Below, one piece after another: positions 1 to 51,600 of a stretch of 64,000 nucleotides of DNA (its first letter is position 1; every line of letters starts with the position of its first letter). The position numbers were made by a program, and so were the translations under genes. The notes under the pieces are model-generated. The model did no database searches. It was not told where the DNA came from and saw only the letters and a list, made by a program, of their open reading frames with translations. Source of the stretch: Eunapius fragilis (taxonomy: Eukaryota; Porifera; Demospongiae; Spongillida; Spongillidae); assembly GCA_963681505.1 (NCBI GenBank), contig OY811988.1:4751107-4815106 (forward strand). Reading direction: 5' to 3'.

Positions 1-2352
1 CATGTCCTGAGCTCCACTGAGTAACTAGCACAGCTATATGTTGTCTCTTGATAACCAGCCGAGGGTTTTTTCAACAATCTGTGTCCACAGACGCTTCACA
101 AACGCTGTACTTGGAATCGTGGAATATCCATTGCCGTACGGTACATGTAATCAAAGCACGTGACTTCGATTTATTCATGACTAAACAAACGAAAAGTAAC
201 CGTTTTGTTCTCTCACCAGAAAATATGTCTAGATATAAACTAAACACGTATAGAATGTCCAGTGATTCCTCTTTACGAAAAGGTAAGTTTCATGCCCAAC
301 TATCAGGCGTTTTTTCGAGAAAAATTGCTTGCCGTTTGAGCGCTTCATAATATCCATAATATGACCATGACCTGCGCGGAGTTAGTAGGTAAAAAAATAA
401 CACGCCTTGACTGTGCGCATATATCTTATCTAGTACAGAAATGAATGTAGAAATGCTTAAAAGATTTTCCTTCTTTTATTGCAAGTTTTTTGTGATAAAA
501 ATAAAATTAAGAACATAAACCACATTTTAATGAGCTCCTTCATTGATCAGGAACTAAGAATACCGTAAATGTTATACGGTTCTAATTAGAAAACCTAATG
601 TCCATCTCGAAACAGCCGTGAATTGACAATTCAGTGGACCACGTGACGCGTTTCGAATCCAGGTTTCTTCTACCTATGGTTTGTGTGACCGTGGAATTTA
701 TCCCATAATCATTGGTGCAATGAATATGCTGTGCTCTTGACAACAGACAAGAGCCTGTCGACCTTGTTGTGGATACATTGACATGTTCTCTGCATGAAGG
801 GTGTTAAATCGGGCGTGGATAGACTTCACCCACTGATCACCTAGGAGACCAAAGCCTGCACCCGTCCGCCTTGCCCAAGGGACAGTACATGTATGCAGGC
901 CTGGAGTACCATTTTCATGGATATACCTCTGGCAATATAGGTACATCCATGAAACAGCAAGGACACTACAACTGAAGGCTTCAAATCACCTGACCATACA
1001 CGTCAGGGGCATTTTTAAGTGTGGGGGGGGGGGGGGGGGGGGGGTAAGGCTATGAATATATAATGAGTGGGCGTGGTATATGTACGCAAATGAACGGCTC
1101 GTTGATAGCTACTGCAACGGTCACACTGACAGTTAATTTAAATAGTCCAAATTTGTTCATCCTGTTTTCTTTACTTGTACAAAACAGTTAGCTATGGGTT
1201 TCAAGTCAAGTGAAGTAATGAATAATAATTCTGCCCGGTAAAGTTGGGGGGGGGGGGGGGGGGGGGGGGGGGAGGGGGGGTAAATTCCCCCACCCCCGGT
1301 TCCGCCGCCGCTGCATGTGGTGCACATTAATGCCCTACATGGGAGCTCCAATGGCTGGCACAGGAGCTCCAGACAGTGATCCAGGATAGCTGATTTGTTC
1401 AATCTGCTAAGGGCATATCAGGTGGGTGGTGTGGTGGTGCAATTCCTTTGACGGTTGCAATAATAATATCTCAGTGGTTGTTGTCGATGTGGTAGTGTCA
1501 GCTTGTGCCTCTTTTGGATAACATACATGCGCATTAAGAAAACTTACTATACAAGCTCACGATGATATGGATGTTCTTAGCATGAGCCTCCCACTTAGTG
1601 GTTGCGTGGAGCTGTAGCAAGTGATAGGTCTGTCCATGATCTGCTCGCACAAATAGGTTATACAAGGGAGGACAATATTAATATCAATGATTATGGCTCT
1701 AAGAGACATTCTTTGCACACTGAACATTGATAGAATGCCCTCCTTTTCTTCCCCTTAGCCACTAGAAGGCGTCCACAGACTCTACAACGTTTCTGGAGCT
1801 GGTCTCTGTGGCGTTCCATCTAGGCTATGTGACCGAATAAAGCAACAAAGCCGCATTATTCATAGAAAAGCAAAACCGTTTATCGCGTGGTGAAAAAAAA
1901 GTGTGGCTTCATGTTATTGTATGCCTAACTTTGTGTAGTTGACGATGCGGCATGCTGACCTTCTTGAGAATTTGTCTGTGCTTGGTATTTTCGGCCTAAA
2001 GTATAAAGATTGCGATATGAAGAGTGCGCACATGTACTACGATGATACCCCATTTAAATGCGATGGTTTAACAGGCATTTGGTGATAAAATGAACATGAT
2101 AACAGCTCTCTTAAAAAGCGCCGTTATAATGAGGTGGTGGATTTTCTTGGTTTACGGTATAGTCTAATTATGGACTAATGTCCAACCGCAGAGGGCTGTG
2201 ACTCATAAATGTAGCAGATACGATAGCATACCAGATACAGAAATGGGTCTTCACATTACGTAACATACAGTACATCAGATATTGGTACATACATGAAACA
2301 ATATGTTTTAAATACGATACTTTGACGGTACAGAAACGGATTTTTGGCTGTC
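1..2352. other. Left edge, no gene recognised
   Basis: I see no convincing gene here. There are two long poly-G runs (about 1022-1044 and 1246-1279) and AT-rich sequence. On the minus strand at 698-946 an 82-codon frame contains GLLGDQWVKSIHARFN, which looks like a piece of an old transposon-associated protein, but it is too short to name. Confidence 0.4.
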
Positions 2353-2939
2353 TACACAGCCAAATTGTTACAATCTGTAGCAGGAATGATATATATATCA
2401 ATATGCATCAGATTGATAGTCAATATGTCTCAGATATGATAGGCAGCCACAATCTGATACAGATTCTTCTGACAATGTGACACAGACTGAAGCTACATTA
2501 TGGTTCATATATTCAACAATCCGTAGCGGAATGATTGACATACTTCTAACATATTGAATACATGCTGTGACAGTTATGAGTAATATTCTTATTTGGAATA
2601 ATGCACCTATCTAGGGGCTTCACCAAACATTCGATTATTTTTCACGTAGCGCATGACGAAATACAAATAAGTAGGCGTCTCTTCTGCTCCAGGTCCCGCA
2701 TTGTACGTGCATGAAAGAATTTGTAATCTATGGGGTGGGGCATTCCAATCGTAAAATTTCCCCTCCCCTCTTCATCCTGTGCCCGCACTGGGAGGAGTGG
2801 GAGAGGCGGTGCAAAGATACTCGATGTATAAAATATTATGGCATACGGATGATATATAAGATATAAAAGTTGCAGCTGATATATGGGATGATAAATGATG
2901 AAGTCAAGACCGATGATGTGAACACTGTCGACAGCAAGG

Positions 2940-3151
2940 CTAAGATGAATAAGGGTCACCATGTACATCTTCTGGAAGTGGTGATAGGTGTGAGTACTCA
3001 GCAGGGCCAACAATGGAATCCTCTTCCTGCAGGGCTGCTGCTAGTTCTTCATCGCTAGGCTTTCCATTGGTATATAGTTCATATTGAGCCACTGCTGGAA
3101 GCCCTTGTAAGTGTTGTGCTTGCTAGTCAGAACAGTTCGACAGTATTTACG
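2940..3151 (-). pseudogene. Relic last exon of the transposon accessory gene
   Basis: Read on the minus strand, a splice acceptor (AAATGCAG) at 3152-3159 precedes an exon beginning RKYCRTVLTSKHNTYKGFQ. This aligns with the last exon of the intact accessory gene at 16593-16832, which has RTYLRTHDDARKNTYKAFE. Shared features are RT.L, NTYK.F..WL and a following Y..G.P. A 2-bp insertion at the TATATA after NMNY shifts the frame. Reading past it gives an acidic tail ending in PYSS and a TAG stop at 2940-2942. The other four exons of the gene were not found here. Its survival beside the transposase remnant argues that the accessory gene travels with the element. Confidence 0.6.
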
Positions 3152-3476
3152 CTGCATTTAGGAGAGATTATGTATGTACTACACACGGTAAAATATGCAC
3201 TCAAACAGCAAAACTTACGAAAATGGCTACATGTGAAGGGAAACTGGTAATCACATCCCTGTTCACCTTTAATACGGGTAAAAATTTTTCAACAAAAGCT
3301 TCACACTTCAGATTTCTCCTCTCCCACCTCCCTCCTCCACTCCATCACATCACCTGAGCTCCATTACACCTTCCCATTATCACTCCTTTACATCTCTTCT
3401 CTGTCACCTCCCTCCTCCATCACATCACCTGAGCTCCATTACACCCTCCCACTATCACTTCATTACATCTCTCCAG

Positions 3477-3873
3477 TTTGGAGGGCTGCCGTACTGGTGC
3501 CCAGGCAGGTCCAGACGCCATCTTGTCTGAGGTGTGGGCCACAGGAATGGCTCGGCCTGATGGCTCACTGCCATGCAGCACAGGTGAGTATGATGTCATG
3601 AGCATGTATGATGATGTCACATGTATACAGTGATGTCATAGGTATGTAGGATGAACATGCAGGTATGTGTCATGTCATGCTTACGTTTGTACACATGGTA
3701 GGTTGGTCCACACTGGTTGACAACCATGTAGATAGCAACCAGAGAGATGCACCAGAGTTGCTATGGTCTCAGAGCTGCGGTGGTGGGGACCATTTGGAAT
3801 ACCCTACTGTATGGCACATGACAGGGCATCAGGATGTGGCGGCCATAGATGACTTCTATGTCCCTGCACTTTG
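3477..3873 (+). pseudogene. Two unexplained spliced exons inside the relic transposon
   Basis: Two exon-like segments occur between the accessory and transposase remnants: 3477-3583 (CTCCAG acceptor, GTGAGT donor) and 3702-3873 (acceptor TAG at 3699-3701). The join at phase 1 makes a glycine codon and keeps one open frame: LEGCRTGAQAG... through ...WSTLVDNHVD... to ...IDDFYVPALC, then a poly-C run. Nothing in the intact transposase or its partner matches. C/T-rich repeats before the first exon resemble introns of the host gene at the right edge. They could be captured host exons or part of another transposon protein; I do not recognise the family. Confidence 0.35.
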
Positions 3874-4084
3874 CCCCCCCCCCCCCCCCCCCCCCCCCCT
3901 TCCCCTTTCATATCCCCTCACAATACCCTGCCCCCCCCCCTCCATACACACACATCCCTGCTCCCCCCTAACACATGGATCCCTGCTTCCCTAACACATA
4001 GGGGATGTATCCATCTACACACCAGTGATATGTGAGGGGGTGGGAGTGATGTACCCATCTACACACCAGTGATGAGTGAGGGGT

Positions 4085-4519
4085 ATGAGTGATGTACTTC
4101 ATAGAAGCTGTCACATCACAGTTTGAGGTAAGACTTGAAGAGACTTTTCCAACATACATTTTCACTCAAATTCAGATGCAGTATGGTATCTTGCTAGCTA
4201 CGTTCAAGTGTAATGATGGCAGTGTTCACTGCCTTGTTCAAGGCTTTCAAAAGCTGGAGACTGCAGATGGGCAGGCTGTTAAGAATTCATATGACTGCCC
4301 TCTTCTTGAACTCAGCCGAGCAACCTTCTGTACTCCAAGCAGCAATGTCAGACGTGTGCAGTGTCACTTGTTCATGAATGCAGTGATTCGTGTGTGTGTC
4401 TGGAGACCACAGCAGTGGACAACGTTGAAAGAGAAGAGGTCTCAATCCAATCCAAACTGTTGTTCAAGCATGATTGGCAAAATTATCTGTATTGTTATAA
4501 TGTTTATTGCGCACTCTAA
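4085..4519 (+). pseudogene. Relic 3' exons of a Plavaka-like transposase
   Basis: The penultimate exon remnant ends at 4127 (YFIEAVTSQFE, donor GTAAGA). The last exon starts at 4176 after the acceptor TTCAG. It reads YGILLATFKCN...VQGFQ, aligning with FGVLLTTCKST...IQGFQ of the intact transposase, and continues with SYDCPLLELS against HHDCPIFELT. A frameshift follows, after which the other frame reads QNYLYCYNVYCAL then TAA (4517-4519), matching the intact C terminus RNYMYCYNVYC. It is clearly homologous but dead. The upstream exons have been lost from this relic. Confidence 0.7.
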
Positions 4520-5876
4520 TTAGAAAATCTATTCATTACATATATATAGATAACTACATAAACATTACCTTATTAGGAAAATTCTATTACAAGCACTATG
4601 TGAATAGCTATATAAACAATGCCTTATGAGGAACTCCTATCTCTGATACGGTATGTAAGTCATTATGAAACATATTGATACAAAAATCTGTTACAGGAAG
4701 TACGAACAATTTGCGCCAGATTGTTACTCTACATACTTTGGTACATATTGATATCATACTTTGTATCATATTGATATCATATTTGGATCATATTGTATAC
4801 ATTTTGAGTCAGGAATGGACGAGTTGCGCGTAAGGTACAAAGAATTTAATCATCCTTAATTACATCCGGACTGCTACTGTTTGAACGGAACTCAACGTGT
4901 AATACCGCCATGCTTGGGAAACCTTGAGGAATAAACAGCTGCTATACCTGGCACATGGTGCCGAGTATGTGACAACAGCAAGTCCGGTGATCCAAATGCC
5001 TCCTTTCATGGATTCCCTACTAACCTAGAAAGGTGGCTATCTATCTAGCTTACCGTGTTTAACTTACAGCCAATTAAAGGATGTAAAGCCTCACCATCGC
5101 GTTTGCTCCATCAGACATTTTCCAAATAGCAAAGCGAATAACAACCCCGAAACTACTCTCGGGAATAGGTTATCCTCCCCCCCCCCCCCCCCGCGAGCTA
5201 AAAACCGAGAGGTCAATAAGCAGCTAATTCGACTATAGATTCTCTATTGTCAACGTTAGTAACATCGGCACCATCAAGCATGCAGCAATTCTGTGACAAC
5301 ATTCACCTTTAAACAACCTCGAGCTCCACTTTCTGTAGCTGATTTCGGAGAACAACTAGTGAGCGACTATCAAGTGTATGAGATGCCCAACAATGTTGAC
5401 GATGCCTCACAGTCTGGCGCATTACCCATCGATGGGTTCAATCTAACTCCCTTTAGACTGAATCATTAGTAAATGCTCCAGTGCATGTAACTCCCCGTCT
5501 AGAAACTCAAAATACTTCCAGAAACGAATATGCACCTACAAAGATTAACTTTAGGATCGAACACGATGATTGCCTAGTTAGAGTGTATACTGGGTTCATA
5601 TTTGTTTGGCCTTCTACAACTTCCTTGTTCCAGTTGTTATTGATCTGCAGTTTTGAGAGTCAAAGGAGGGCGCTCCTGTACGGAATTGAAAAACGAAAAA
5701 TAGATCCAGAAAATCAACAGTTTATGGCGTTGGTGAAGCTAAGGCAAATATCATGACTAAACGTCACCGTTCCTTGGGCTGACAACTTTAAGACATAGAG
5801 ACTAGCAGTCCGGACGTGACGTCACGTTCAATCAAATGTTTAATCAACATTCCATCGCTTACGCGCAACTGGTCCA
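4520..5876. other. 3' flank of the relic element
   Basis: AT-rich sequence with repeated short motifs of the type TTGATAC/AATCTGTTAC near 4640-4800, similar to subterminal repeats of the intact element. A poly-C run lies near 5180. No gene was recognised. Confidence 0.4.
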
Positions 5877-5969
5877 TTGCAATTTGGCTGTGTAGTGGCT
5901 ATCAGTGATACACGGAGTCGACGCTCAAGTCTATCGCGCGGTTTTCAACCAACCTACTCTAATATATCT

Positions 5970-14228: not shown

Positions 14229-15476
14229 TAAATAACGAATTAACGTACCTGTATAAGCCGTAGTGAGCGGTACTAGCTGTCAATCAACTTCAGAAATACG
14301 CATCCAGACTCTTCAATTACCCATCAAACTGCACTGCTGGAAGAGCATACAGTAATTGGGCAAAAGTGGTCCAGAATAGAAGGACTGAACTGGCTATAAT
14401 ATGTACTTACAGTCAGTGAGCACCCCTAGAAGTAGGACTATTTTAAGGATTGCTGCATGCAGTAATCCTATAGGTGGCTGTTGGGGGCTGGACTGATCCT
14501 GGGGTGTTTTTGTAAATTCTTTACCATGCAGTCAACTGCGTGTCCACTCAAAAGGGAAGCCGTCTATCCAACACTTGTTTGTACCCATATCACAAAAGTG
14601 AGTTGAATGAGTGCCTGTAGCATCTTGACTTTGAGAGGCGAAGAGAGTATTTAATGATTCTGCATGAAAACACTCTATCAAGAAGCAGCCACGCACCCTG
14701 CATCGCTCATTCACCTTCGTTGTGCGTGTCTCTATTCAAACCTACGCAAATTATTCATGAACTACTCTTGCCCTGATCAACAAAAAAAAAAGAAGCGGCT
14801 CCATCTTTGCCAGTGCATGTTATTTATATGCAGGGCCGATGCCGCCGTTCAAGCAGGTGCGGCCATGGCCGCACCACTTTTTGAAACTTCGATTTAAAAA
14901 AAAAATTATACTTTATAGTTAATTGCGTACTCTGCTGCATGATGCAAGTGCTATTCATTTAATACTCATCTCGCTTGTGGCTCCTTTTTGCTCATCAATC
15001 CTTTGTTTCATTTCATACAAGCGCCCGGCCTGCGCGCGGTTTGGCCGCACCACTTTTTAAATGCCGGCGTCGGCTCTGATATGTGTTCTCCTATCTGTGC
15101 TGATGGCTCTATTGCTTAGAGAATTCTTAGGGTTGGTTCCTGCACTAAAAGCGCTGAAGTATACCCCATTTTACCCCATTTTACCCCCGCCAGATTGGCA
15201 TAGCTCTGAAAACGCAGAGCCACAGGTAATAACTCACACCTACATTGATGGTTTCGTTTATAGCTATGGTCGAGTGTTGTGAAAAGCCTTTTCATTTCTC
15301 ATAGGTTGTACAACAAGTAAGATATATGGTTCGCAAAAACAGGTGTCGTGTAATGAGATGCGGCTGGAATAATTTTGGCTCATGTCCACTGAGCCGCAAA
15401 AAGCAGTACTGTAGATCTGGGTACGAGGCTATTACGGTCACACCCAGTCTATCGCGCGGTTTCCAACCATCCTATA
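14229..15476. repeat. Duplicated flank of unit A, upstream of methyltransferase 2
   Basis: Closely matches 26646-27610 of unit B. Unit A carries about 230 extra bp (14830-15060) bounded by copies of GGCCGCACCACTTTTT, either an insertion here or a deletion in unit B. It ends in TCTATCGCGCGGTTTCCAAC, the sequence found just upstream of methyltransferase copies 1 and 4; the transposon at 15477 has separated it from its gene. No gene of its own was seen. Confidence 0.7.
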
Positions 15477-15489
15477 CACAGCCAAAAGT
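15477..15489 (+). repeat. Left terminal inverted repeat
   Basis: CACAGCCAAAAGT, followed by subterminal TGTAC/GTACC and TTGATAC motifs to about 15660. Confidence 0.85.
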
Positions 15490-15660
15490 GTACATGACTG
15501 TACCAATAATGATAGCGCTTACAACCTGTAACGCTCATTGATACAATAATTGTATCAGTTTTACATGTTGTTACAATTCATGACGGTACAACCTGTTACT
15601 TGTTTCTCCATATCAGCCATAATCATTCCTGATAAAAATTTATTGATACATGATGTAGCA

Positions 15661-16592
15661 TCGCGTGATGCATTGCGTGCCCTTTTTAATATAGAGGGGT
15701 TTATTTTATTTTAAAAGCTTCACTACCTCACTCTTGGGCCACAACAGCGTCGCGTAACTTAATGTAGCTGTCACTGAGCTTGAGAGGAGGAACGGTAAGT
15801 TAGTGACTCAGACTGAAGTGATGCATGTTTCATCCGACGAACTCCTCTAGGTCTAGCTACTGATTAGAGGAAGTAGTTATTACTTCACACCTTCAACCGG
15901 TACAAATGAGGCAGTCAAGCCTCGCTAGAATGTCACGTCTTAGGGGCGTTTCTTTGCCCCTTGTCTACGACGCTGAAAGGGTATTTCTTGTCCCTACGTT
16001 TGGCATCATCGGACCAGATCAAACACACCTCCACCTTCTTTGGATGCTAGAGATTTAGTAGACCCTACAGTTACCAGTCGGTCCCGATGCGTACTCTCGG
16101 TACCCGAGTAAATCGTTACGTCAGTACACATGTAAACACAGATTTCTGATTGAAGCACATCAAGTTAATTTCTGCGCAAGAGATAGTCACCCATGCATTT
16201 ACATTACTTATGAATGATTGGTCTTCGCAATGTCAATGACATCCAAGTATCGCTTATGCTTCTTAATTAAGGATTGTGAATAGAAGACATCGGAAAGCGG
16301 ACCCGTGCCGTGAACAAAACAAATCATTCTAGTGACATTTAACCCTTTCCTGAGCCTTCAGATATGTACGTACATGCTCATGCTTATATGCAAATATCGC
16401 AATCTCAAATTGGCATATGTGATACAAGATCAGATGTTATACACTGCCTCAAATGCATGGGCTATGAGAATACATATGATAACTGGATAAGCATAAGCTG
16501 GAGAATATGAATAATGAGTGCAAGAGTTTTTGAGCGAGGATACAATTTGGTCAGCAGCTTATTACTGTTGTTCACTTTGTTTTTGTCTTACT
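15661..16592. other. 3' flank of the accessory gene inside the transposon
   Basis: No reading frame of note between the subterminal repeats and the stop codon of the minus-strand gene. It probably contains that gene's 3' untranslated region. Confidence 0.4.
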
Positions 16593-17684
16593 TCAGTGTG
16601 CTTCAAAATGGTGCTCTCCAACGCCAAAATCAAGTTGTTCTTCCATAGGCTCTGGCTCTGCACCGGTAACATGGGATGGGGCAGTGCTATAGTTGTACAA
16701 ATGGTCTGCATGGTAGTGCTCCTCCAGTACAGCAGCTGGCGGTTGGCCCCCTTCATAACGCCTGGACAGCCATTCCTCGAATGCTTTGTAGGTATTTTTC
16801 CTTGCATCATCATGTGTCCTCAGATACGTCCGCTATCAAAATGCACAACAGATAAATGTTAAATGATTGCATAGTATGCAAAAACATACCAAAAATGCAA
16901 CGCTGTGTTCATACTGCAAACGTATAGCAGGATCATTCACTTTTAGGATAGCATCAAACTTTTCTACAAACTCATGTGTGGTATAATGCAGGTATGCTTC
17001 GCAAGGCCGAAGACCTAATAGCTGATGAACACAGCAATCATCATCACAATAACTAGATAATTAATTAATTTAAATACCCTTCGTCTTTCTTCAGCTCTCA
17101 ACATTGTAAGGTAGCCATTGCAGTACACAAGAGTCTTTTTAAGCTTGTAGTTTTCCTTATCATTCTTAAGGACCTTCACAATGGCATTCTATTTTATTAT
17201 ATAATTTTAGTGGCAACAATGATTTATAATAACCAACCCCAATATCCTCTTTGGCAGGATTCCTTGAAACAGACTTGCAAAATAGAAGGGACACTTCTAA
17301 GCTTAATTCGGTCTATTACAAATATTATACATATAGTAAAACAAAATTTGTCACACAAATTTACATAACCTTGTAGCCACTATCCTCAATAGTGAATCCT
17401 TTTTCATTTGCAGTTTTCACTGTGTTTGTCAACTTTTTAACTTCATCTTGTAATCCACACAGCAATCCATTGAACTGGTGCAGCTGAGCCTTCATCACTT
17501 TCATTTCTTCTTTATGAGCTATTGCTTCTTCTTTGATAGCCTTCAGTATGGGGTACAAAGGATGGGATTCAGCTGGCAGTACCGCGTTGGTGGCAGGGGT
17601 TGCACTGTTGATCTGCTGTGCAGCTAATGGACGTTGTGGGGTTGAAATCCTGGAGCTGGCACCCGGAAGCAGCGCGCGATTCAT
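16593..17684 (-). CDS. Transposon accessory coiled-coil protein (5 exons)
   Basis: On the minus strand, exons 17684-17370, 17273-17238, 17188-17078, 17021-16890 and 16832-16593 join through GT-AG introns, all phase 0, to a 277-residue protein with no stop. It starts MNRALLPGASS. Residues about 44-100 form a probable coiled coil (ILKAIKEEAIAHKEEMK). A basic helical part follows (AIVKVLKNDKENYKLKK), then an aromatic-rich segment (HYTTHEFVEKFDAI, TYKAFEEWLSRRY) and an acidic tail with PEPMEEQLDFG. I do not recognise the family. Its ATG is 51 bp from the transposase ATG, head to head. A relic of its last exon lies in the older element at 2940-3151. By analogy with TNPA of plant CACTA elements it could bind subterminal repeats or partner the transposase; that is inference. 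Confidence 0.75.
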
Positions 17685-17735
17685 TTCTGAGCACGTGTTT
17701 TGAAATTAAACACAGGCCGGGGTTAAAAGTTAAAC
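17685..17735. promoter_or_regulatory. 51-bp divergent intergenic region
   Basis: Only 51 bp separate the ATG codons of the accessory and transposase genes, so their promoters and 5' leaders must overlap or lie within each other. This would couple expression of the two genes. No TATA box is evident. Confidence 0.55.
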
Positions 17736-20700
17736 ATGGCTTCTGAAATGTTTCGAGGTATAATATGGATTCGCTGATGTTATATACATGTATAAGGCAT
17801 TCTATCACTACTTTCATCTTACCGTGATAAAAGGTGAATTTCATTGCGATGTATGCAAGGAAAACTTTCCGTTCCAAAGCCGGTTAATCCGACACCTAAA
17901 CACTGCTGCTCATCGAATAATGGAAGCAACGTTTAGGAAACACCGTCAGCCCATTCCGAAAAGCAGTCCAACTGAAGTATCCTCAGTGCGTTGGTACCTT
18001 TATGAACGATACTTTGAGGGGGCGGGGGGTGATTTGATACACATGTATACATCGTTACAAACCCAGCAATGAATGTTATTAGCTGTATGCAATCCACGTT
18101 TTGCGGGAAGTGGTCATGTCGATAGGTATTTTAATAATGATTCATAATGGTGCATATTATATAGGACAATTTGGAGGTGCAGAGAGTTGACAATGATGAC
18201 CGTGAGATGAATGAAAACAGTTCTGATGAATGGCAAAGTGAAGATGTGGATGAGGATGACCTTGTTAATGAACTGACATCCCACTCCAGTGGTGATTTTA
18301 GTCCATTCCCTAACAAGCAATTTGCTATGCTATATTTACTACTTCATGGACCACATCCCATTGTGAGTAATGTTACTAATGTATTGTAGTATTTTTAATA
18401 TACTCTTGTTTAAGGGAGAGACTAGTCTTGCTTTTATATGGCATATCATAAAACAGTGTGGTGTTGACATACCCAGCATTACCACACTTAAATTATGGAA
18501 GTTACCAGGGCTAACATTGCCATCCAAGGTAAGAATTGTCACTAGACTAAGTCCTAGTTCTTTATGCGTATTGTTTCTTCGTGCAGCACCTTTCACCAGA
18601 CGGAACACCATTTTACTGCATATCTTTGGCACGAGTTGTTCAGCAGTTCATTGGTAATCCAAAGGTTTCATCCATGATTGCTCGCTACCCTGTGTGTACC
18701 ACAGGACCTTATAGGTCAGTTATTTTATTACTTGAATTTTTTGGTCAGTAGTTCTGTAAATACTGCATGTTTAGAGAAATCTATCATGCGCATTGTTGGA
18801 GAAATGACACACGCTACCACACACCTATGGTTACTCTGATGGATGGTACTCATGTGTTTGTTCGTGATTGTGTTAACTTCAACCATGCTCAGTTTGGGAC
18901 AGTTAGAGGAGTTGTACTGAGGTTTTTTGCCATGGTTAGTTTTTAAAATATAATTCCTATCTTGTGTGGTTTTATCTTGTGTGGTCTTATATACTCAGAA
19001 CTTGCCTAATGAACTCTACAGTGAAATTGAGGTTCTCCTTAGTAATGAGCAGTTCTGTAGCACACCTGAGTATTCGTCTGATTGTTTTATCCCGAATGAC
19101 TGCTTTGTCATTTACCATACTGTAACCATGCCCATATCATCAATTGAATGTCAATCACCTCCACCGTCATCAATCATTAGATGGCGCGAACAAGGATTCC
19201 AAAGATTTGGTTTGCAGGTGAATAATCATTACTTCTTGTATGTAGAATGACATACGTTTCTTCACTTTTGCAGGAAACTACAGATTACTTTTCTCCTCAT
19301 CCATTGAAGATGAAAGCCGCTGGGAGGCCAGTAGTAGTGATGCCTGTGGTTTTATTTTGCGACGACACTAGTGGCAATCGGAGCAAAAAGTGGCATGCCT
19401 TCAATTCCTGGTATCTTGTTTTTGCTGGCCTGTCCCACCAGGAAAATGCCAAATTGCCCAATTTGGTGTTTCTTTGCACATCAGATAAGGTTTCTCCATT
19501 GGACATGAGTACACCCATTGTGGCTGAATTGGAAAAACTTGAGAATGAAGGGGTTCAGGCCAATGATGCACATCAAAAAACGGATGTTTTGGTCATTACC
19601 CCAGTAATGTGCATTGTTGCTGATAATCCACGTGCTTCGGAGCTGGCAAATCATCTTGGAGCTACTGCTAATAAATATTGCCGCATTTGTATGGTAAGTG
19701 CTATGTGCTTACAGTTTTTCAACTTAACCTTTTAAGTTTAACATCCCTTTTAAAGGCTGACAGGATTGAGTCTCCTAAAGTAATTGCAGAGATCAGGTCA
19801 CTGGAAAAATCAATTGCTCAAATAGCTGAAATTAAGTCTGCAAGGACAAATGAACGTAAAGCAGAGCTATCTACTTTGTATGGCTTGAGGGCTACACCAA
19901 ATCCGTTTCTTTGTGGTTTAAAACTGAATATCTATATGTGAGTTCAAATGTTTTGTTATGAGGATTACAATTGCTTCTTTACAGAGCCCTTCCTGTTGAA
20001 CCTCTTCATACAGTACCACTTGGTTCATGCAAGTACATACTGAAGCAAGTTATGCCATTATTTTCTTTGCATCAGAAAAAAGAGATCCTTGCCCGTGTAA
20101 AGGCTTTTAACACGTCTGGTTTTGAGACAAAAATGTACGGAAATGTGTGCTGGTACTATGGATCATTTGTTGGCCGTGATTTTAAAGCATGGTCACAAAT
20201 GGCACCATTTATTCTTGATCCATATGTTAGTGAGGGTCACAAAAAAGTACTTTTGAGCTATTCCAAGGTACATGCAATGAAATAAATAACCAGTACTTTT
20301 AATGTTCCATTCTTTCAGGTCTTCAAGATGATGTACTGTGATAGTTTTGCACCATCTTTATTCGATGAATGGCAGGCAATATGCCAGTCATTTGTGGACA
20401 CTGTGAATGAATTCATGCCAGAACTTATACATAAACTGAAGATCCATCTTGTCCTTCACATTCCCCAGTGTTTTATGCAGTATGGACCAACAGCTGCCTT
20501 CAGTGCTGAAAGGTAAACATGCATGTTATACAATGAATTGTACCAATACAAGGTACATGCCAGTGTTTCATGTCTGCATTTGATAGTTGTTGTATGTATG
20601 TACGTACGTATGTATGTATGTATGTATGTATGTATGTATGTATGTATGTATGTATGTATGTATGTATGTATGTATGTATGTATGTATGTATGTATGTATG

Positions 20701-20836
20701 TATGTATGTATGTATGTATGTATGTATGTATGTATGTATGTATGTATGTATGTATGTATGTATGTATGTATGTGTGTGTGTATGTATGTATGTATGTATG
20801 TATGTATGTATGTATGTATGTATGTATGTATGTATG

Positions 20837-20870
<34 letters not shown>

Positions 20871-22000
20871 TGTATGTGTGTATGTATGTATGTATGTATG
20901 TATGTATGCATGTATGCATGTATGTATGAATGTATGTATGCATGTATGTATGTGAGTGTATTGTGTGCATGCTATTAAACTATCCATTGAATATTGCTTG
21001 CTTGCTTTGTAGGTTTGAGTACTATAATTCAAAGGTTAGGGAGCAAAATATTTTTAGCAATAGACGGGCTCCCAGCCGTGATATAGCTAAACATTTTGCT
21101 ATCCTGCAACACATCCGTGCTATTACAGATGGAGGCTGCTATGGCGACTCTGAAAAGTAGATGCATGCATGCACTTTTTGACATATAAGTCATTTTTGCT
21201 TGATTCTTATAGGTGTGGAGGAGCTCTCAGAGACCTGTACTCATCTAACTGTGCTCAGGCATATCTCTATGGCACATCAAAAAGTGTCCTCTTTAGTGGA
21301 AAGCAAATATATCAGCATGGATCACCACGATTGGTATGTCGATATATTCCTTGTACATGTATAATCATTACAACCTTCAGTTGTGTCACAGAACCAAGAT
21401 TTCAGTTTTAAAATCGATTGCAATTGGTGTAGTAGGGTATGAAGAGTGCTGTCTTACGGAGCTGCAAAACCTCATGCCACCTTTTGATGTTACCCTGAAC
21501 CACACGCATGTTTCTGAGAAGGTTTTGCAGTATCGAGGTGTAATCTCTAAATCGTTGCAGCTGGTACATAGTGGTGAATACGTGGAATTGTGTGTCCCTT
21601 TTGAGGTATGGACTCAAAGCTCAAATTGTTCTCGTTGTTTACATATTTATATTTCTTTCAGAACTTCAAGTTTGGGGTATTGCTCACCACCTGCAAGTCA
21701 ACTGGTGGCACTGTATTTTGTATCATACAGGGCTTTCAACCTTGCATCAGCAATGCTGTACCACTTCTTAGTCACCACGACTGTCCTATTTTTGAACTAA
21801 CAAAGACGATTTTCACAACTGAAGCGACAAATGTATCAAAATCAGTGTCATTTGTCCACCTGTGTGCAGACAGTTGCAAATTTGAGGAGGCCTCTGCATC
21901 TGTACTGCTGGAGCAAGAAGAGGTAGATGCACCTGGACTGCACTTTATACATGACTACAGGAATTATATGTACTGCTACAATGTATATTGTATGTGTTAA
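17736..22000 (+). CDS. Plavaka-like (CACTA superfamily) transposase, 15 exons
   Basis: Exons 17736-17757, 17834-17976, 18165-18362, 18415-18528, 18587-18714, 18775-18934, 18999-19217, 19274-19693, 19756-19937, 19985-20267, 20319-20512, 21013-21156, 21213-21333, 21381-21605 and 21662-22000 join in phase to 963 residues with no stop. All introns are GT-AG. A C2H2-type finger lies at 12-34 (C12, C15, H28, H34) and an acidic stretch at about 62-88. SPFPNKQFAMLYLLL is at 100-114. CDDTSGNRSKKWHAFN starts at 357, carrying a likely catalytic aspartate, and a CRIC zinc-type motif is at 464-467. FEYYNSKVR and SNRRAPSRDIA near 690-712 are hallmarks I associate with Plavaka transposases. Intron 2's donor (GTATCC) and intron 12's donor (GTAGAT) are non-optimal. 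Being intact makes this candidate autonomous; domestication is the alternative. Confidence 0.75.
20589..20955 (+). repeat. (TATG)n microsatellite in transposase intron 11
   Basis: About 90 near-perfect TATG/GTAT units fill most of the 500-bp intron 20513-21012, with a few TGTG and GCATG interruptions. The long reading frames over it on both strands are artefacts of a 4-bp repeat. Confidence 0.95.
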
Positions 22001-22097
22001 TATAATGTGTATGAATGTGGTGTAACCTAGCTAGAAACCTCACCACCTATTAGAATGGAACTTTAGGCAACGGTGTATCGTAGATATGATTGTATTG

Positions 22098-22103
22098 AAT
22101 AAA
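22098..22103 (+). terminator. Probable poly(A) signal of the transposase gene
   Basis: AATAAA 98 bp after the transposase stop codon, followed by T/G-rich sequence. Confidence 0.5.
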
Positions 22104-22309
22104 AGTTGGTTTATAAATCACCAGATAGTGGTTATTAAAAATAATTTGCCGCGTTGCGTTTGCAATCGAGTTGACGTGCGCCAGGTTGTAAACACTCCGA
22201 TTCACTGGTCAGGCTAGGTTAAACTCAAAGGTACAGATAGAATAAGGAACACAGTGTATTATTTTTATCGGTGCTGCGTCTTTTGCAATTCTATTGTCTG
22301 CTGGTTCTA

Positions 22310-22513
22310 ATGGCGGTGTCTTTACAACAACGAAGTGATATTACTTTCACATCAGAGCGAAACATGTTAAGTGCCACATCCTTTGCGCCCATCCTTTCAT
22401 CGTTCCACGTTCAGCAGAGGGTGTTTAACTACAGGTATGTTTAGTTGAGGTGAGCACCAATTGGAATCATGGTGTTGTTATCTTGCAGGCATGTCAGAGA
22501 ACTAAAGAATTAA
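22310..22513 (+). CDS. Possible small two-exon reading frame in the transposon
   Basis: ATG at 22310 opens MAVSLQQRSDITFTSERNML, ending at a GTATGT donor after 22434. Joining to 22489 (after TTGCAG) gives HVRELKN and stop, 49 residues in all. Further GT/AG-like signals follow at 22522 and 22583. It could be a third small gene, an alternative transcript or chance. No similarity was recognised. Confidence 0.2.
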
Positions 22514-23285
22514 GTTTGAGGGTAAGTGTTTTTTTTTTTAAATTCACATTCATAACTCACTACATGTAACATCTGTTGACAGAATGATGATTGGATACAC
22601 GGGAGGTTTTTGGCCTTCGTGAAGTAGCGGAGCGGGGCTTCGCTATGACTACACGCTTGCCACCGTTACAGGTAAAGGCTTAAATCTTGATCATCCATTT
22701 TTAACCAATATGTTTGGCCCATTCTAGAGATGCATTGTCGTATGAAGTTCTAACTTGCATCTCGTGATGGTTCACTTGGCGTCGTAAACCATGTAGGCCT
22801 CTGCGTTCTGGATAGCTGCATGTGTGCATTTTCACCATGTGTATGTATCACTTTGTTAGGTTACTCTATGGCAGTTGCGATAGGACATGGAACATTGAAT
22901 GACCAACGCTCGCGCTCGTCATCGTTCTGGTGTTTATGGGCCCGAATCAACTGAAGAGAGTACTGGACACATTCGTTATAATTTGTAATTGTTAAGTTTA
23001 TTAATTTTTAATGGCAACGTACCTATCCAAGATATGAGAACAAGAATATACGGATATGGATCTATAGACACAGTTATTAAGATTAATTTTCCTACCCATC
23101 ATGCAGTGATCCAATATTGTAACATGCCCTGGTACAGGTTGTTATCATGTTTGTACGGTTATTAATTCAACAGTCATTGTACCAACTTTGTCCAACGGGT
23201 GCGTACCAATCATTGATATCAAGATGGCTTACAACAATGATATCATCTTGTAACAATACCGTAACATCCAATGTACCAATATATA
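22514..23285. other. Right subterminal region of the transposon
   Basis: No gene. From about 23110 the sequence repeats TTGTAAC, TGGTAC(A), TTGTTATC and TACCAA motifs that also occur at the left end, consistent with transposase or accessory-protein binding sites. Confidence 0.5.
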
Positions 23286-23298
23286 ACTTTTGGCTGTG
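23286..23298 (-). repeat. Right terminal inverted repeat
   Basis: ACTTTTGGCTGTG, the exact complement of 15477-15489, followed by the TA target duplication. Confidence 0.85.
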
Positions 23299-23314
23299 TA
23301 CTCTAATATCAATT

Positions 23315-24115
23315 ATGGCAGCCACTCAGCAGATGGACGTGGACTACAGCCACTTTGACGCTAGAGCCTATCTCGATTACTACTACAGCGAGCTGTCATC
23401 GTTTAGTGACGTTCTTGCCGAATACGCCCGCTTTTTCTCCCGGTTTTCAGCCAACAGTCTCTCCGTGTTGAACGTGGGAGGCGGGCCATCTCTCCTGTTG
23501 CCCATCTACATGGCAGAGAAGATATGCGAGTATGTGCATTCAGACTACGTGAAGAGCAACAGAGACGAAGTGGAGAAGTGGGCAAGTGCCGACCCCACCG
23601 CATTTAGCTGGCGGGAGCACGTGCGGCAGTGTCTAAGACTGGAGGGAAGAGACGTCTCAGAAGAGGGTATTGCGACACGAGAGAAGCGTATGAGGAGCGT
23701 ATTCAAGGCCTCCGTTGCCTGTGACATTTTTGAAGAACAAGTCGTACCACCCGAAAGCACTGGTCCGTACGATTACGTCATTTGTACGTGCGTCCTTGAC
23801 GTTCTGTGCACTTCCGTGGCATCACTGGCCACGTCCGTGAGACGCCTCGCCGCTCTTGTGAGGGAAGGCGGCTACCTTCACATCGAGATGGGTTACGACA
23901 CAGAAGAAGTAAGTAGCTCAGCGAACTACCGTGTTGGGGACTTCGTCTACAAGAAATTGAAGGGTGTGAGATTGCCTACAATCTTAGAAACTATCAGGGC
24001 AGCAGGACTCTCTTTAGAGCATCAATTCTCGTTTACGGAAGAATACGATAACGTAACGGCCTACAAGGACCAAATAATAATGATTATTGGTAGAAAAATT
24101 GCAGTGGAAAAATAA
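23315..24115 (+). CDS. NNMT/PNMT-family methyltransferase, copy 2
   Basis: 266 residues, about 97% identical by eye to copy 1, with the same motifs (LNVGGGPS, SDY...KW, EGGYLHIEMG). It lacks the first two residues (MV) because the sequence just upstream differs (CAATTATGGCA). Individual changes include YARF for YPRF, KICEY for KIREY and ATREK for AAREK. The CACAG transposon ends only 16 bp before this ATG, so the normal promoter has been displaced 7.8 kb upstream. The gene is intact as protein, but its expression would depend on a promoter supplied by the transposon end. The frame remains open through the transposon end to 23147. Confidence 0.8.
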   Translation: MAATQQMDVDYSHFDARAYLDYYYSELSSFSDVLAEYARFFSRFSANSLSVLNVGGGPSLLLPIYMAEKICEYVHSDYVKSNRDEVEKWASADPTAFSWREHVRQCLRLEGRDVSEEGIATREKRMRSVFKASVACDIFEEQVVPPESTGPYDYVICTCVLDVLCTSVASLATSVRRLAALVREGGYLHIEMGYDTEEVSSSANYRVGDFVYKKLKGVRLPTILETIRAAGLSLEHQFSFTEEYDNVTAYKDQIIMIIGRKIAVEK

Positions 24116-34084: not shown

Positions 34085-35066
34085 TGTGTGTGCAAGGGGG
34101 GGGGGGGGGGGCACCTTGCAGGGAGGGAGGTGTGTACAAGGGGGGGGGCACCTTGTAGGGAGGGAGGTGTGTGCAAGGGGGGGCACATTGTAGGGAGGGA
34201 GATGTGTGTGCAAGGGGGGGGGGCACATTGTAGGGAGGGAGGTGTGTACAAGGGGGGGGGGGCACCTTGTAGGGAGGGAGATGTGTGTGCAAGGGGGGGG
34301 GGCACATTGTAGGGAGGGAGGTGTGTGTGCATGGGGGGGGAGGAAGGTGTGTGTGCAAGGGGGGGGGGGCACCTTATAGGGAGGGAGGTGTGTGCAAGGG
34401 GGGGGGCAGAGAGGGAGGTGTGTGTGCAAGGGGGGGCACCTTGTAGGGAGGGAGGTGTGTGTGCAAGGGGGGGCACATTGTAGGGAGGGAGGTGTGTGTG
34501 CAAGGGGGGGGGCACCTTGTAGGGAGGGAGGTGTGTGTGTGCAAGGGGGGGAGGGAGGTGTGTGTGCAAGGGGGGGGAGCACCTTGTAGGTAGGGAGGTG
34601 TGTGTGCTAAAGGGGGGGGAGGGAGGTGTGTGTGCAAGGGGGGGCATCTTGTAGGGAGGGAGGTGTGTGTGCAAGGGAGGGGGCACCTTGTAGGGAGGGA
34701 GGTGTGTGTGCAAGGGGGGGGCAGAGAGGGAGGTGTGTGTGCAAGGGAGGGGCACCTTGTAGGGAGGGAGGTGTGTGTGCAAGGGGGGGGGCACCTTGTA
34801 GGGAGGGAGGTGTGGGGGGGGCACATTGTAGGGAGGGAGGTGTGTGTGCAAGGGGGGAGGCACCTTGTAGGGAGGGAGGTTTGTGTGCAAGGGGGGCACC
34901 TTGTAGGGAGGGAGGGAGGTGTGTGTGCAAGGGGGGGGATACCTTGTAGGGAGGGAGGTGTGTGTGCAAGGGAGGGGGCACCTTGTAGGGAGGGAGGTGT
35001 GTGTGCTAGGGGGGGCAGAGAGGGAGGTGTGTGTGCAAGGGGGGCATCTTGTAGGGAGGGAGGGGC
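34085..35066. repeat. G-rich minisatellite 1, block C intron
   Basis: About 28 units of 30-37 bp of the type GGGAGGGAGGTGTGTGTGCA + poly-G + CACCTTGTA. All long reading frames here are repeat artefacts. Confidence 0.9.
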
Positions 35067-35072
35067 ATTGTG

Positions 35073-35345
35073 GGAGAGAGAAGTGTTGGGGGAGGGAGGG
35101 GTGTTGGGGGAGGGAGGGTGTTGGGGGAGGGAGGGGTGTTGGGGGAGGGAGGGGTGTTGGGGGAGGGAGGGGTGTTGGGGGAGGGAGGGGTGTTGGGGGA
35201 GGGAGGGGTGTTGGGGGAGGGAGGGGTGTTGGGGAGGGAGGGGTGTTGGGGAGGGAGGGGTGTTGGGGAGGGAGGGGTGTTGGGGGAGGGAGGGGTGTTG
35301 GGGGAGGGAGGGGTGTTGGGGGAGGGAGGGGTGTTGGGGAGGGAT
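35073..35345. repeat. G-rich minisatellite 2, block C intron
   Basis: About 15 units of GTGTTGGGGGAGGGAGGG. Strong G-quadruplex potential. The block D counterpart is almost four times longer. Confidence 0.9.
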
Positions 35346-48627: not shown

Positions 48628-51600
48628 ATGCCTCCAAAGAAACCACAGCTGAAGCACAACGCCTCGTCTAAGGGAACGAAGGCGATCAAGAGGGCCAGTG
48701 CTAAGGCCAAGCCGGCGGACAATCCATTGATGGTTTTCGAATTCGACTCCGGCGACGAGGAAATGTCGGTGACCCCGCTACGTCCGAGGGGGGCGGTCCC
48801 CACCCCGAAGCTGGCGTCGGGCCAGTCGTCAGACGGGAACGACCTGAGCGACCACTTTACGGACCACCCATCTCAGTCGGACGACGGGGATGAAGGAGGC
48901 GGAGACACGACGGAAGATGGGTCCGACGAACTCGAGGACGTATTGGCGGGACTCGTCGAAGACCCATCTCCAGCCGCGCTCAATCCGAAAAGGGCGGTAG
49001 TTCGACCCCGCCGCGGGGGCACGACTAGAGGCGGGAACAAGAGGGTTAAATGCAGCGCAACTGACGCCGCCACCCTCGTTACTGACGGCACACCTCCACC
49101 CGAGTCCGACAGCCCAACGAAAATATCCGGGGTGGTTGCTTCGGACGCGCCCGTATTCCCTGACCCCCTGGGAGAGGAAGGACTCACTCCTCCCAAAAGG
49201 GCACACCCTGCAAGCAAGAGGGGCCGAAAGGCTATGACGGCTCCGTCCGTTGTAGCCACATCTCCTCACTCCGCCCCTCAACTGGGCGGGGAAGTAAAGC
49301 GCAAGCGGGGTCGACCCCCGAAGAACACGCCCACCACACCCAAGCGGGGCCAGCCCCCGAAGAACACGCCCACCACACCCAAGCGGGGTCAACCCCCGAA
49401 GAACACGCCCACCACACCCAAGCCTCTCCCTTCTCTCCCTCCGTCGCTACAACCCCTACCTCCCCTCTCCTCCTCCCCCACACCCCTGGTGGCCGTCGAA
49501 GCCGCCATGATTGAAGGCCACCCGTTGTCCGAGTCCCCAGTCCAAGTTGAAATCCACGACAGCGGCGTTGCTCAGAGCAACCACACGTCTCCCCCTCCCC
49601 CTCCTCTTTCGACAGTGGCGCCAGAACAGCAAGAAGTCATGAAGAGAAAGAGGGGACGTCCCAGGAAGAGACCTTTGACCCCTCCTCCTCCTCCTCCCCC
49701 TCCTCCCCCCCAACCTGTTCATGGGGGTGCCCACGAACCCCCAACGCCTGCTGCTCAGGGCGTGCCCAGTGAGTGGGCGGAGTCACCCCTCCTTAGGGCT
49801 TCTACTGATAATAATTCTTTGGTTAGGGACACACTCACTGGTGGTACACCCTTGGTTAACACGTCCACTGAGAACACGCCCATTGATGACACGCCCACTA
49901 AAGGCACACCTACAGTGCAGGACCGGCCCGGTACTGAGCTGACACCTCTCTCCGGTGCTGAGGTGACACCCCTACCCGGTGTGAGCACCAATGCACGCAG
50001 TGCTTCAGGGTCATGTGAGGGCACCAGTGTCATGAGTGACGTTGAGGAGATTGCTGGTGATGGCACTCACGAAAGGTTGTCCTCACCGACCAAGAATGGT
50101 ACTGGTCATTTAAAGATGGAAACTGACAGTGGTGAGGGAGGTGTGTGTGCAAGGTGGAGTACCTTGTAGTGTGTGTGCAAGGGGGGGGGGGTACCTTGTA
50201 GGGAGGGAGGTGTGTGTGCAAGGGGGGGGGTACCTTGTAGGGAGGGAGGTGTGTGTGCAATGGGGGTACCTTGTAGGGAGGGAGATGTGTGTGCAAGGGG
50301 GGGTACCTTGTAGGGAGGGAGGTGTGTGTGCAAGGGGGGGTACCTTGTAGGGAGGGAGGTGTGTGTGCAAGGGGGGGTACCTTGTAGGGAGGGAGGTGTG
50401 TGTGCAAGGGGGGGTACCTTGTAGGGAGGGAGGTGTGTGTGCAAGGGGGGGTACCTTGTAGGGAGGGAGGTGTGTGTGCAAGGGGGGTACCTTGTAGGGA
50501 GAGAGGTGTGTGTGCAAGGGGGGTACCTTGTAGGGAGGGAGGTGTGTGTGCAGGGGGGGGGGGGGGCAATTGTAGGGAGGGAGGTGTGTGTATTCAAGGG
50601 GGGGGGGGCAGAGAGGGAGGTATGTGTGCAAGGGGGGGGGGCACCTTGTAGGGAGGGAGGTGTGTGTGCAGGGGGGGGGCAGAGAGGGAGGTGTGTGTGC
50701 AAGGGGGTATCTTGTAGGGAGGGAGGTGTGTGCAAGGGGGGGGCATCTTGTAGGGAGGGAGGTGTGTGTGCATGGGGGGCAGAGAGGGAGATGTGTGTGC
50801 AAGGGGGTGCACCTTGTAAGGAGGGAGGTGTGTGTGCAGGGGGGCAGAGAGGGAGGTGGTGTGCAGGGGGGCAGAGAGGGAGGTGTGTGTGCAAGGGGGT
50901 GCACCTTGTAAGGAGGGAGGTGTGTGTGCAGGGGGCAGAGAGGGAGGTGGTGTGCAGGGGGGCAGAGAGGGAGGTGTGTGTGCAAGGGGGTGCACCTTGT
51001 AGGGAGGGAGGTGTGTGTGCAAGGGGGGGGGGGCACATTGTAGGGAGGGAGGTATGTGTGCAAAGGGGGGAGCAGGGACGGAGGTGTGTGTGCAAAGGGG
51101 AGGGGGGCAGGGAGGGAGGTGTGTGTGCAAGGGGGTACCCTGTAGGGAGGGAGGTGTGTGTGCAAGGGGGGGGGGGGCAGGGAGGGAGGTGTGTGTGCAA
51201 GGGGGTACCCTGTAGGGAGGGAGGTGTGTGTGCAAGGGGGTACCTTGTAGGGAGGGAGGTGTGTGCAAAGGGGGGTACCTTGTAGGGAGGGAGGTGTGTG
51301 TGCAAGGGGGGGCAGGGAGGGAGGTGTGTGTGCAAGGGGGGGTACCTTGTAGGGAGGGAGGTGTGTGTGCAGGGGGGGGCAATTGTAGGGAGGGAGGTGT
51401 GTGTGCAAGGGGGTATCTTGTAGGGAGGGAGGTGTGTGTGCAAGGGGGGGGTACCTTGTAGGGAGGGGTACCTTGTAGGGAGGGAGGGGCATTGTGGGAG
51501 AGAGAAGTGTTGGGGGAGGGAGGGGTGTTGGGGGAGGGAGGGGTGTTGGGTGAGGGAGGGGTGTTGGGGGAGGGAGGGGTGTTGGGTGAGGGAGGGGTGT

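What the first reader, a model, noticed from the sequence alone, without database searches (positions are those of the whole stretch)
15477..23298. Intact two-gene CACAG transposon with a divergent coiled-coil partner gene
The element has perfect 13-bp ends and a TA duplication. It carries a complete 15-exon Plavaka-like transposase plus a five-exon, 277-residue protein of no family I recognise. The two start codons are 51 bp apart, head to head. Every intron of the small gene is phase 0 and both frames are uninterrupted. This suggests a co-regulated transposase/accessory pair, functionally like TNPD/TNPA of plant CACTA elements but unrelated in sequence as far as I can see.
Basis: partly seen in the sequence, partly recalled or inferred. 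Interest (0 to 1): 0.85.

Follow-up and report, generated by a model that had tools for sequence, protein, structure and literature searches.

The report
Two-gene transposon with conserved partner gene
This is a complete jumping gene that carries, besides its cut-and-paste enzyme, a second gene of unknown family that lies head to head with the enzyme gene in most of the related elements examined in the same genome, which suggests that this group of elements needs a helper protein to move or to stay active.

Summary
Window 15477-23298 is a 7,822-bp DNA transposon with perfect 13-bp ends (CACAGCCAAAAGT) and a TA duplication; a paralogous flank at about 42.36 kb keeps the empty site with a single TA. 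It carries an intact 15-exon DDE transposase (966 aa) and, 51 bp away head to head, an intact five-exon gene with phase-0 introns. My splice model gives 290 aa, not 277, and relatives support it. A 99.6% full-length copy lies on another contig. The partner is no chance passenger: of 43 related transposase loci from two genome searches, 33 have a homologue of the small gene beside them, 33 of 33 head to head, in families whose partner proteins are only 30-50% identical. Divergent families have TA|CACA(G/A)CCA ends. Their terminal ~200 bp carry a degenerate TGTTACAA-like repeat with 11/22-bp spacing; a motif learned from other families is enriched at both window ends. No Pfam family or solved structure matches the small protein convincingly. 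Its role, most likely a TNPA-like factor assembling on these repeats, is inferred. The transposase has the CMCT (EnSpm/Plavaka-type) signature; 'Plavaka' itself is not established. New variant of a known kind.

The parts
15477..23298 (.). complete transposon, 7,822 bp, flanked by TA duplication (15475-15476 and 23299-23300)
   Evidence: empty site
15477..15489 (+). left terminal inverted repeat CACAGCCAAAAGT
23286..23298 (-). right terminal inverted repeat
15490..15690 (+). left subterminal array of degenerate TGTTACAA-like sites (12 sites in 200 bp on the outward strand)
23085..23285 (-). right subterminal array of the same motif (11 sites in 200 bp on the outward strand)
17370..17684 (-). 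small gene exon 1 (start codon at 17684; coiled-coil-like segment)
17238..17312 (-). small gene exon 2
17078..17188 (-). small gene exon 3 (LRAEERRR motif)
16890..17021 (-). small gene exon 4
16593..16832 (-). small gene exon 5 with stop codon
17685..17735 (.). 51-bp gap between the two start codons, putative bidirectional promoter
   Evidence: promoter function inferred
17736..17757 (+). transposase exon 1
17834..17985 (+). transposase exon 2 (C2H2-like zinc finger, sub-threshold Pfam match)
18165..18362 (+). transposase exon 3
18415..18528 (+). transposase exon 4
18587..18714 (+). transposase exon 5
18775..18934 (+). transposase exon 6
18999..19217 (+). transposase exon 7
19274..19693 (+). 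transposase exon 8 (LFCDDTSGN, VADNPRAS, CRIC)
19756..19937 (+). transposase exon 9
19985..20267 (+). transposase exon 10
20319..20512 (+). transposase exon 11 (HLVLH and the glutamate of SAER; the R codon spans the next junction)
21013..21156 (+). transposase exon 12 (after a TATG microsatellite in intron 11)
21213..21333 (+). transposase exon 13
21381..21605 (+). transposase exon 14
21662..22000 (+). transposase exon 15 with stop codon

Best explanation
An apparently intact two-gene cut-and-paste DNA transposon of the CMCT clade (EnSpm/CACTA-Mirage-Chapaev-Transib and kin) that inserts at TA. Shown: both genes, the ends, the empty site, the copies, and the long-term head-to-head pairing. Inferred: it is autonomous; the two genes share one bidirectional promoter; the 290-aa partner self-associates through its N-terminal coiled coil and, with its conserved LR(A/S)EERRR-containing C-terminal domain, assembles on the helically phased subterminal repeats to bring the two ends together and to load or regulate the transposase, working like TNPA with TNPD but with no detected relation to TNPA. 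The anatomy and pairing I hold at about 0.95; the stated confidence is for the whole mechanism.
For: Anatomy. Full-length copy at 99.6% over 7,806 aligned positions. Empty site with one TA. Pairing: 26 of 39 transposase loci, plus 4 of 11 unpaired ones read upstream, plus 3 of 4 new loci (compared by eye) = 33 of 43, all 33 divergent; three more pairs in fetched DNA (L032, L036, L041). Chance expectation for the first 39 is 0.24. Four phase-0 introns recur in other families. dN/dS 0.07, 0.13 and 0.30 among the three young copies, on few changes. Distances of partner and transposase correlate. 3-4 hydrophobic spacing M61-M64-L68-F71-L75-L78-V82-L85-V89. Subterminal motif learned from 10 ends of other families, log-likelihood 108.6 against a highest of 61.5 in 12 shuffles, is enriched at both window ends; periodicity at 11, 22 and 23 bp in 14 ends, no peak in 15 control stretches.
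Against: No binding, expression or transposition data. Exact k-mers are not enriched at the window ends (P 0.06-0.59). Other places in the window score as high or higher on the motif: the right end's count is reached by 0.9% of positions and the top reverse-strand stretches lie elsewhere. The transposase has its own C2H2-like finger, which could bind the repeats alone. Ten of 43 transposase loci show no partner within the limits used; seven of them were read 3.5 kb upstream without finding one. Of 84 partner loci clustered, 51 have no transposase shown, mostly single-exon pieces whose surroundings I did not read. No DNA-binding domain is recognised in the small protein. Correlation of distances falls to r 0.51 (p 0.03) without a near-duplicate element. 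dN/dS between close pairs of relatives, most of them decayed, is 0.5-1.2.
Confidence: 0.5

Rival explanations
1. The transposase's N-terminal C2H2-like finger binds the subterminal repeats; the partner does not touch DNA but is a transposase co-factor (nuclear import, stability or chromatin targeting), as proposed for the second protein of PIF/Harbinger elements (recalled).
For: A C2H2-like pattern opens the transposase in the window and in relatives (translations; sub-threshold Pfam matches in 2 of 4 scanned). The partner has a coiled-coil pattern but no recognised DNA-binding fold.
Against: It leaves the conserved basic EERRR motif of the partner unexplained; neither model was tested.
Confidence: 0.25
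2. The partner is a regulator or anti-silencing factor acting on the shared promoter and on the ends, keeping the element expressed (as reported for TNPA on methylated Spm promoters), and is not needed for the cutting reaction.
For: 51-bp head-to-head gap; TNPA precedent read in passages of PMC1636069.
Against: No methylation or expression data. Retention in 33 of 43 loci is equally expected of a transposition factor.
Confidence: 0.15
3. The partner is a negative regulator that limits transposition.
For: A coiled-coil protein made from the same control region could titrate the transposase; nothing specific.
Against: Long retention in divergent lineages fits a positive role at least as well.
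Confidence: 0.07
4. The small gene is a captured host gene or passenger without a role in the element.
For: Some copies stand alone in the DNA read (L033, L026+L046), and 51 of 84 partner loci have no transposase shown, most of them not read around.
Against: 33 of 33 paired transposase loci share one orientation, four introns recur, and the pair persists across families at 30-50% protein identity. Nothing in three genome searches looked like a conserved single-copy host gene, though this was not tested in other species.
Confidence: 0.03

Closest known systems
En/Spm (CACTA) TNPD + TNPA of plants
   Same: CAC..GTG-type 13-bp ends; a DDE transposase plus a second protein; subterminal repeats at both ends; gene-less deletion derivatives keep the ends.
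   Different: TNPA and TNPD come from one alternatively spliced unit (passages of PMC1636069 and PMC2613891); here two separate divergent genes. TSD is TA, not 3 bp. No TNPA sequence was compared directly.
SmTRC1 and other animal/fungal TRC elements (PMC1636069, abstract and passages)
   Same: Animal CACTA-superfamily element with short second proteins; 2-bp duplication in 7 of 14 copies there; Transposase_21 core, here only a sub-threshold match.
   Different: SmTRC1 ends start with CCC; its short proteins come from alternative splicing and had no detectable relatives in other TRC elements.
Plavaka (PlavakaA/PlavakaB, PMC12730594, passages)
   Same: CMCT signature; one relative's transposase gives a sub-threshold PF18759 match.
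   Different: Published termini TGT..ACA or CATCA..TGATG; here CACAG..CTGTG.
ESTA (EnSpm-like elements with TA duplication, rust fungi, PMC12730594, passages)
   Same: CMCT clade and TA target duplication.
   Different: Described there from fungi; sequence relation to the present transposase not tested.
RAG-like transposons (RAG1L/RAG2L; PMC7204232, start of abstract in a search listing)
   Same: Two-gene animal elements in the CMCT clade.
   Different: Genes are convergent there, divergent here; no RAG2-like match in Pfam.
PIF/Harbinger (ORF1 + transposase; PMC2836001, start of abstract in a search listing)
   Same: Two element-encoded proteins needed for movement.
   Different: Different transposase superfamily; no Myb-like match in the partner.

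Membership tests
CMCT clade (definition from PMC12730594) | C(2)C and H(3-4)H motifs between second D and last E | tested here: met
   CDD...ADN...CRIC...HLVLH...SAER in the window; same order in complete relatives. Read by eye, not by a tree.
CMCT clade (definition from PMC12730594) | CA..TG termini and 2-5 bp TSD | tested here: met
   CACAG..CTGTG, TA; 8 of 8 flanks of six copies read
EnSpm/CACTA | CAC..GTG termini | tested here: met
EnSpm/CACTA | 3-bp TSD | tested here: not met
   single TA in the empty site
EnSpm/CACTA | Transposase_21 (PF02992) above its cut-off | tested here: not met
   14.9 to 23.9 bits in 4 of 4 transposases scanned, cut-off 28.6
Plavaka | PF18759 above its cut-off | tested here: not met
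   22.0 against 26.3 bits in 1 of 4 transposases scanned, no match in 3; genome scan silent, but its controls were silent too
Plavaka | termini TGT..ACA or CATCA..TGATG | tested here: not met
ESTA | TA TSD | tested here: met
ESTA | transposase groups with ESTA in a tree | not tested
   no ESTA sequences at hand
TNPA-type accessory protein | binds subterminal repeats | not testable with these tools
   repeats present, binding unknown
TNPA-type accessory protein | produced from the transposase transcription unit by splicing | tested here: not met
   opposite strand, own start codon; no transcript data
PIF/Harbinger second protein | Myb/SANT domain | tested here: not met
   no Myb/SANT match at E 0.5 in any of 10 family members scanned

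The most novel reading that the evidence does not exclude
The partner proteins are a previously undescribed family and, with TA-specific CACAG-ended elements, define a separate animal lineage of two-gene CMCT transposons in which the accessory factor coats 11-bp-phased subterminal sites, an invention of the TNPA strategy independent of plants.
Probability: 0.35. Interest if true: 0.7.

Novelty: new variant of a known kind. Interest (0 to 1): 0.58.

Why it matters
Accessory proteins are known for plant CACTA, PIF/Harbinger and RAG-like elements, but the CACTA ones differ so much between elements that TNPA and TNP1 share little similarity (PMC2613891, passages). Here one accessory family stays alignable across many element families in one genome, head to head with the transposase in every pair found, beside identifiable repeat arrays at the ends. 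That makes an old question, what the second protein of CACTA-type elements does and how it co-evolves with its repeats, testable by comparison and by a simple two-protein assay. Two intact, nearly identical copies exist.

Tried and rejected
Exact k-mer enrichment at the window ends gave nothing significant (P 0.59, 0.34, 0.29, 0.06, 0.58 for k = 6 to 10); the repeats are degenerate and appeared only in autocorrelation and motif search. PF18759 on the whole genome: no hit, but its controls were silent as well, so nothing follows. Partner against Pfam at E 0.5: 22 families, each matched by 1 of 10 members, best E 0.00015 and below its cut-off. Profile against solved structures: best E 0.54. Viral contigs: no relative. 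I considered calling the small gene a host gene and rejected it. A domesticated solo partner at C1:8812655 was considered (no transposase in the 5.6 kb of L046 upstream), but its frame holds a stop.
Full report
What was checked. The stretch 15477-23298 was read directly and tested by script. The ends are CACAGCCAAAAGT and its reverse complement, 13 bp without mismatch, and both flanks are TA. The host genome is held (219 Mb, 24 contigs, unnamed; the window is C18:4751107-4815106).

Gene models. The transposase runs from 17736 to 22000 in 15 exons and encodes 966 residues. The gap between the start codons is 51 bp. A spliced aligner written for the purpose returns the same small-gene model when given that protein.

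Mobility. A full-length copy on contig C6 is 99.6% identical in two aligned blocks totalling 7,806 positions, about 31 differences, with both genes open and its own TA flanks. A third copy on C3 is 95.6-97.8% identical in the part read, and its small gene is open; its transposase was seen only as search hits. A derivative on C7 (L004, about 93%) joins the element's first about 690 bp to its last about 1.2 kb, so both genes are gone while both ends are kept; L006 on C20 lacks the same interior, its right end not matched. All 8 flanks read around six copies of this family are TA. In the window the region is tandemly repeated, and the paralogous flank at 42355-42687 matches the joined flanks across the junction with a single TA, which is the empty site. 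The other two paralogues, at 5928 and 27339, lack the element too, but the site itself is altered there.

The transposase. It shows D (LFCDDTSGN), D (VADNPRAS), CxxC (CRIC), HxxxH (HLVLH) and E (SAER) in this order (same order in complete relatives), the signature given for the CMCT clade in PMC12730594 (passages read). Pfam gives only sub-threshold matches: Transposase_21 in 4 of 4 transposases scanned, Plavaka PF18759 in 1 of 4, C2H2 in 2 of 4 (one of the four lacks the start of the finger). The termini are not those published for Plavaka, and the TA duplication is not the 3 bp of EnSpm but that of ESTA. I therefore place it in the CMCT clade without a sub-lineage. My impression that DDTSGN resembles fungal Plavaka proteins is recalled, not tested.

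The partner is a family. Searching the genome with the small protein gave 36 matching stretches, the three young copies and others at 31-51% identity plus one fragment at 78%. Two relatives as queries gave 51 and 70. Clustering gives 84 loci, many of them single-exon pieces. Of 39 transposase loci, which scored only the best 47 of 1,196 candidates, 26 have a partner locus within 8 kb and 26 of 26 are head to head; random placement predicts 0.24. For 11 of the 13 others I read 3.5 kb upstream, and a profile found a divergent partner in 4 (L048, L051, L053, L057). A second transposase query (best 48 of 1,306 candidates scored) added four loci, compared by eye: three paired and divergent (C9:5277, C2:7105, C6:5620), one not (C5:7601476). 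Total 33 of 43, all divergent. Three further pairs (L032, L036, L041) were seen in fetched DNA. Of the ten without partner, seven were read without finding one; one of these, L050, has an element end right before a truncated transposase. One has a partner 9.7 kb away in the same orientation (C1:4261532), and two were not read.

Seen from the other side, 33 of the 84 partner loci have a transposase shown: 26, six more, and the decayed element at window 2355. For the other 51 none is shown: four were read at least in part (L026+L046, L033, L037, L022) and 47 were not read. Because only best candidates are scored, all these counts are lower bounds and not a census.

Conservation of the partner. 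Ten members align with motifs FxIExSxYK, LFCxxLxRxP, LR(A/S)EERRRxxGxxPC, NTYKxFxKWL. Four phase-0 introns recur in relatives such as L031, L043, L044, L047; in L026, L032, L033, L036, L041, L042 and L053 the aligner placed one or more introns in another phase, through damage or misalignment. dN/dS among the C18, C6 and C3 copies is 0.30, 0.13 and 0.07, on few changes; deep pairs have saturated dS with dN 0.44-0.73 (one pair with dS 1.5 gives 0.41); close pairs of relatives, most of them decayed, give 0.5-1.2. Pairwise distances of partner and transposase correlate over 8 loci (r 0.92, p 0.002 on a seventh of the permutations), less so without a near-duplicate (r 0.51, p 0.03). In Pfam no family matches more than 1 of 10 members (best E 0.00015, below its cut-off); no solved structure matches (best E 0.54), and no viral contig encodes a relative.

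The ends across families. A scan for TA|CACAGCCAA with one mismatch, so TA by construction, gave at least one hit in 19 of 23 sequences and none in L036, L033, L046 and L057; some hits lie inside genes and are chance. L041 (2601-8138) and L043 (765-7242) are complete two-gene elements by this test, L040 has both ends, and L042, L044, L047, L051, L053, L030 and the C7 pair show one plausible end beyond a gene. Autocorrelation over 14 ends, two of them from the second window element, peaks at 11, 22 and 23 bp (z 3.0, 3.6, 3.9), with troughs at other lags; 15 internal stretches show nothing beyond 2.5. Single ends are noisy. A 10-bp motif, ccTGTtACAa, learned from 10 ends of families other than the window's, reaches a log-likelihood of 108.6 against 37.9-61.5 in 12 shuffles. 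Applied to the window, it counts 12 sites per 200 bp at the left end (reached by 0.075% of positions) and 11 at the right end (0.9%); among the highest-scoring stretches are also places outside the element, and the top reverse-strand ones do not include the right end. Inside the element the density falls off about 200 bp from each end. The threshold of 3.5 bits was my choice. Exact k-mers were not enriched.

How it most likely works. Shown: a mobile element, two intact genes, a pair inherited together for long, and phased repeats at both ends. Inferred: the partner forms a coiled coil (hydrophobic residues at 61, 64, 68, 71, 75, 78, 82, 85, 89), binds the repeats through its conserved domain and helps the transposase join the ends, as TNPA does with TNPD (PMC2613891 and PMC1636069, passages). 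The main alternative is that the transposase's own C2H2-like finger reads the repeats and the partner is a protein-only co-factor. Nothing here separates the two.

Novelty. Searches of the paper library listed no paper whose title or abstract start describes such a pair; beyond listings I read one abstract and passages of three papers. Repbase Reports and most subscription journals are not in that library, so an earlier description is possible. I rate it a new variant of a known kind: two-gene CACTA-type elements exist, but a divergent, alignable accessory family of this kind is not described in what I could read.

Noticed in passing
window 2355-5892: A second, decayed element of the same group: ends CACAGCCAAATTG, TA on both sides, remnants of the partner's last exons on the minus strand (about 3074-3314) and of the transposase C-terminus on the plus strand (4176-4474).
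   Followed up: partly
window 2340-2352: A degenerate element end (TTTTTGGCTGTC) abuts the element at 2355 with only TA between them, as if one element inserted at the TA of another; the same back-to-back layout occurs in L040 at 6471/6474.
   Followed up: no
window 5976, 23315, about 27626, 42402: Tandem copies of an NNMT/PNMT/TEMT-family methyltransferase gene (PF01234, E 3.4e-33, for the copy at 5976; the others by DNA similarity). The element ends 16 bp before the start codon of the copy at 23315, and a mechanical open frame (23147-24115) runs from inside the element into that gene.
   Followed up: partly
window 34103-35344 and 50185-52508: Two large, strongly G-skewed tandem arrays with units of 37-39 bp and 18 bp (GGGAGGGAGGGGTGTTGG), GC skew 0.65-0.79 in 2-kb windows; perhaps G-quadruplex-forming, untested.
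   Followed up: no
C8:6013435, C2:14162488, C9:4198925, C1:14913989, C21:3441737 and others: Many loci match only a piece of the partner's exon 5 with the same or nearly the same score and a TAA inside, which suggests a non-autonomous derivative family that amplified a gene fragment.
   Followed up: no
window 20580-20960: A long TATG microsatellite inside transposase intron 11; the alignment with the C6 copy breaks there, so its length differs.
   Followed up: no
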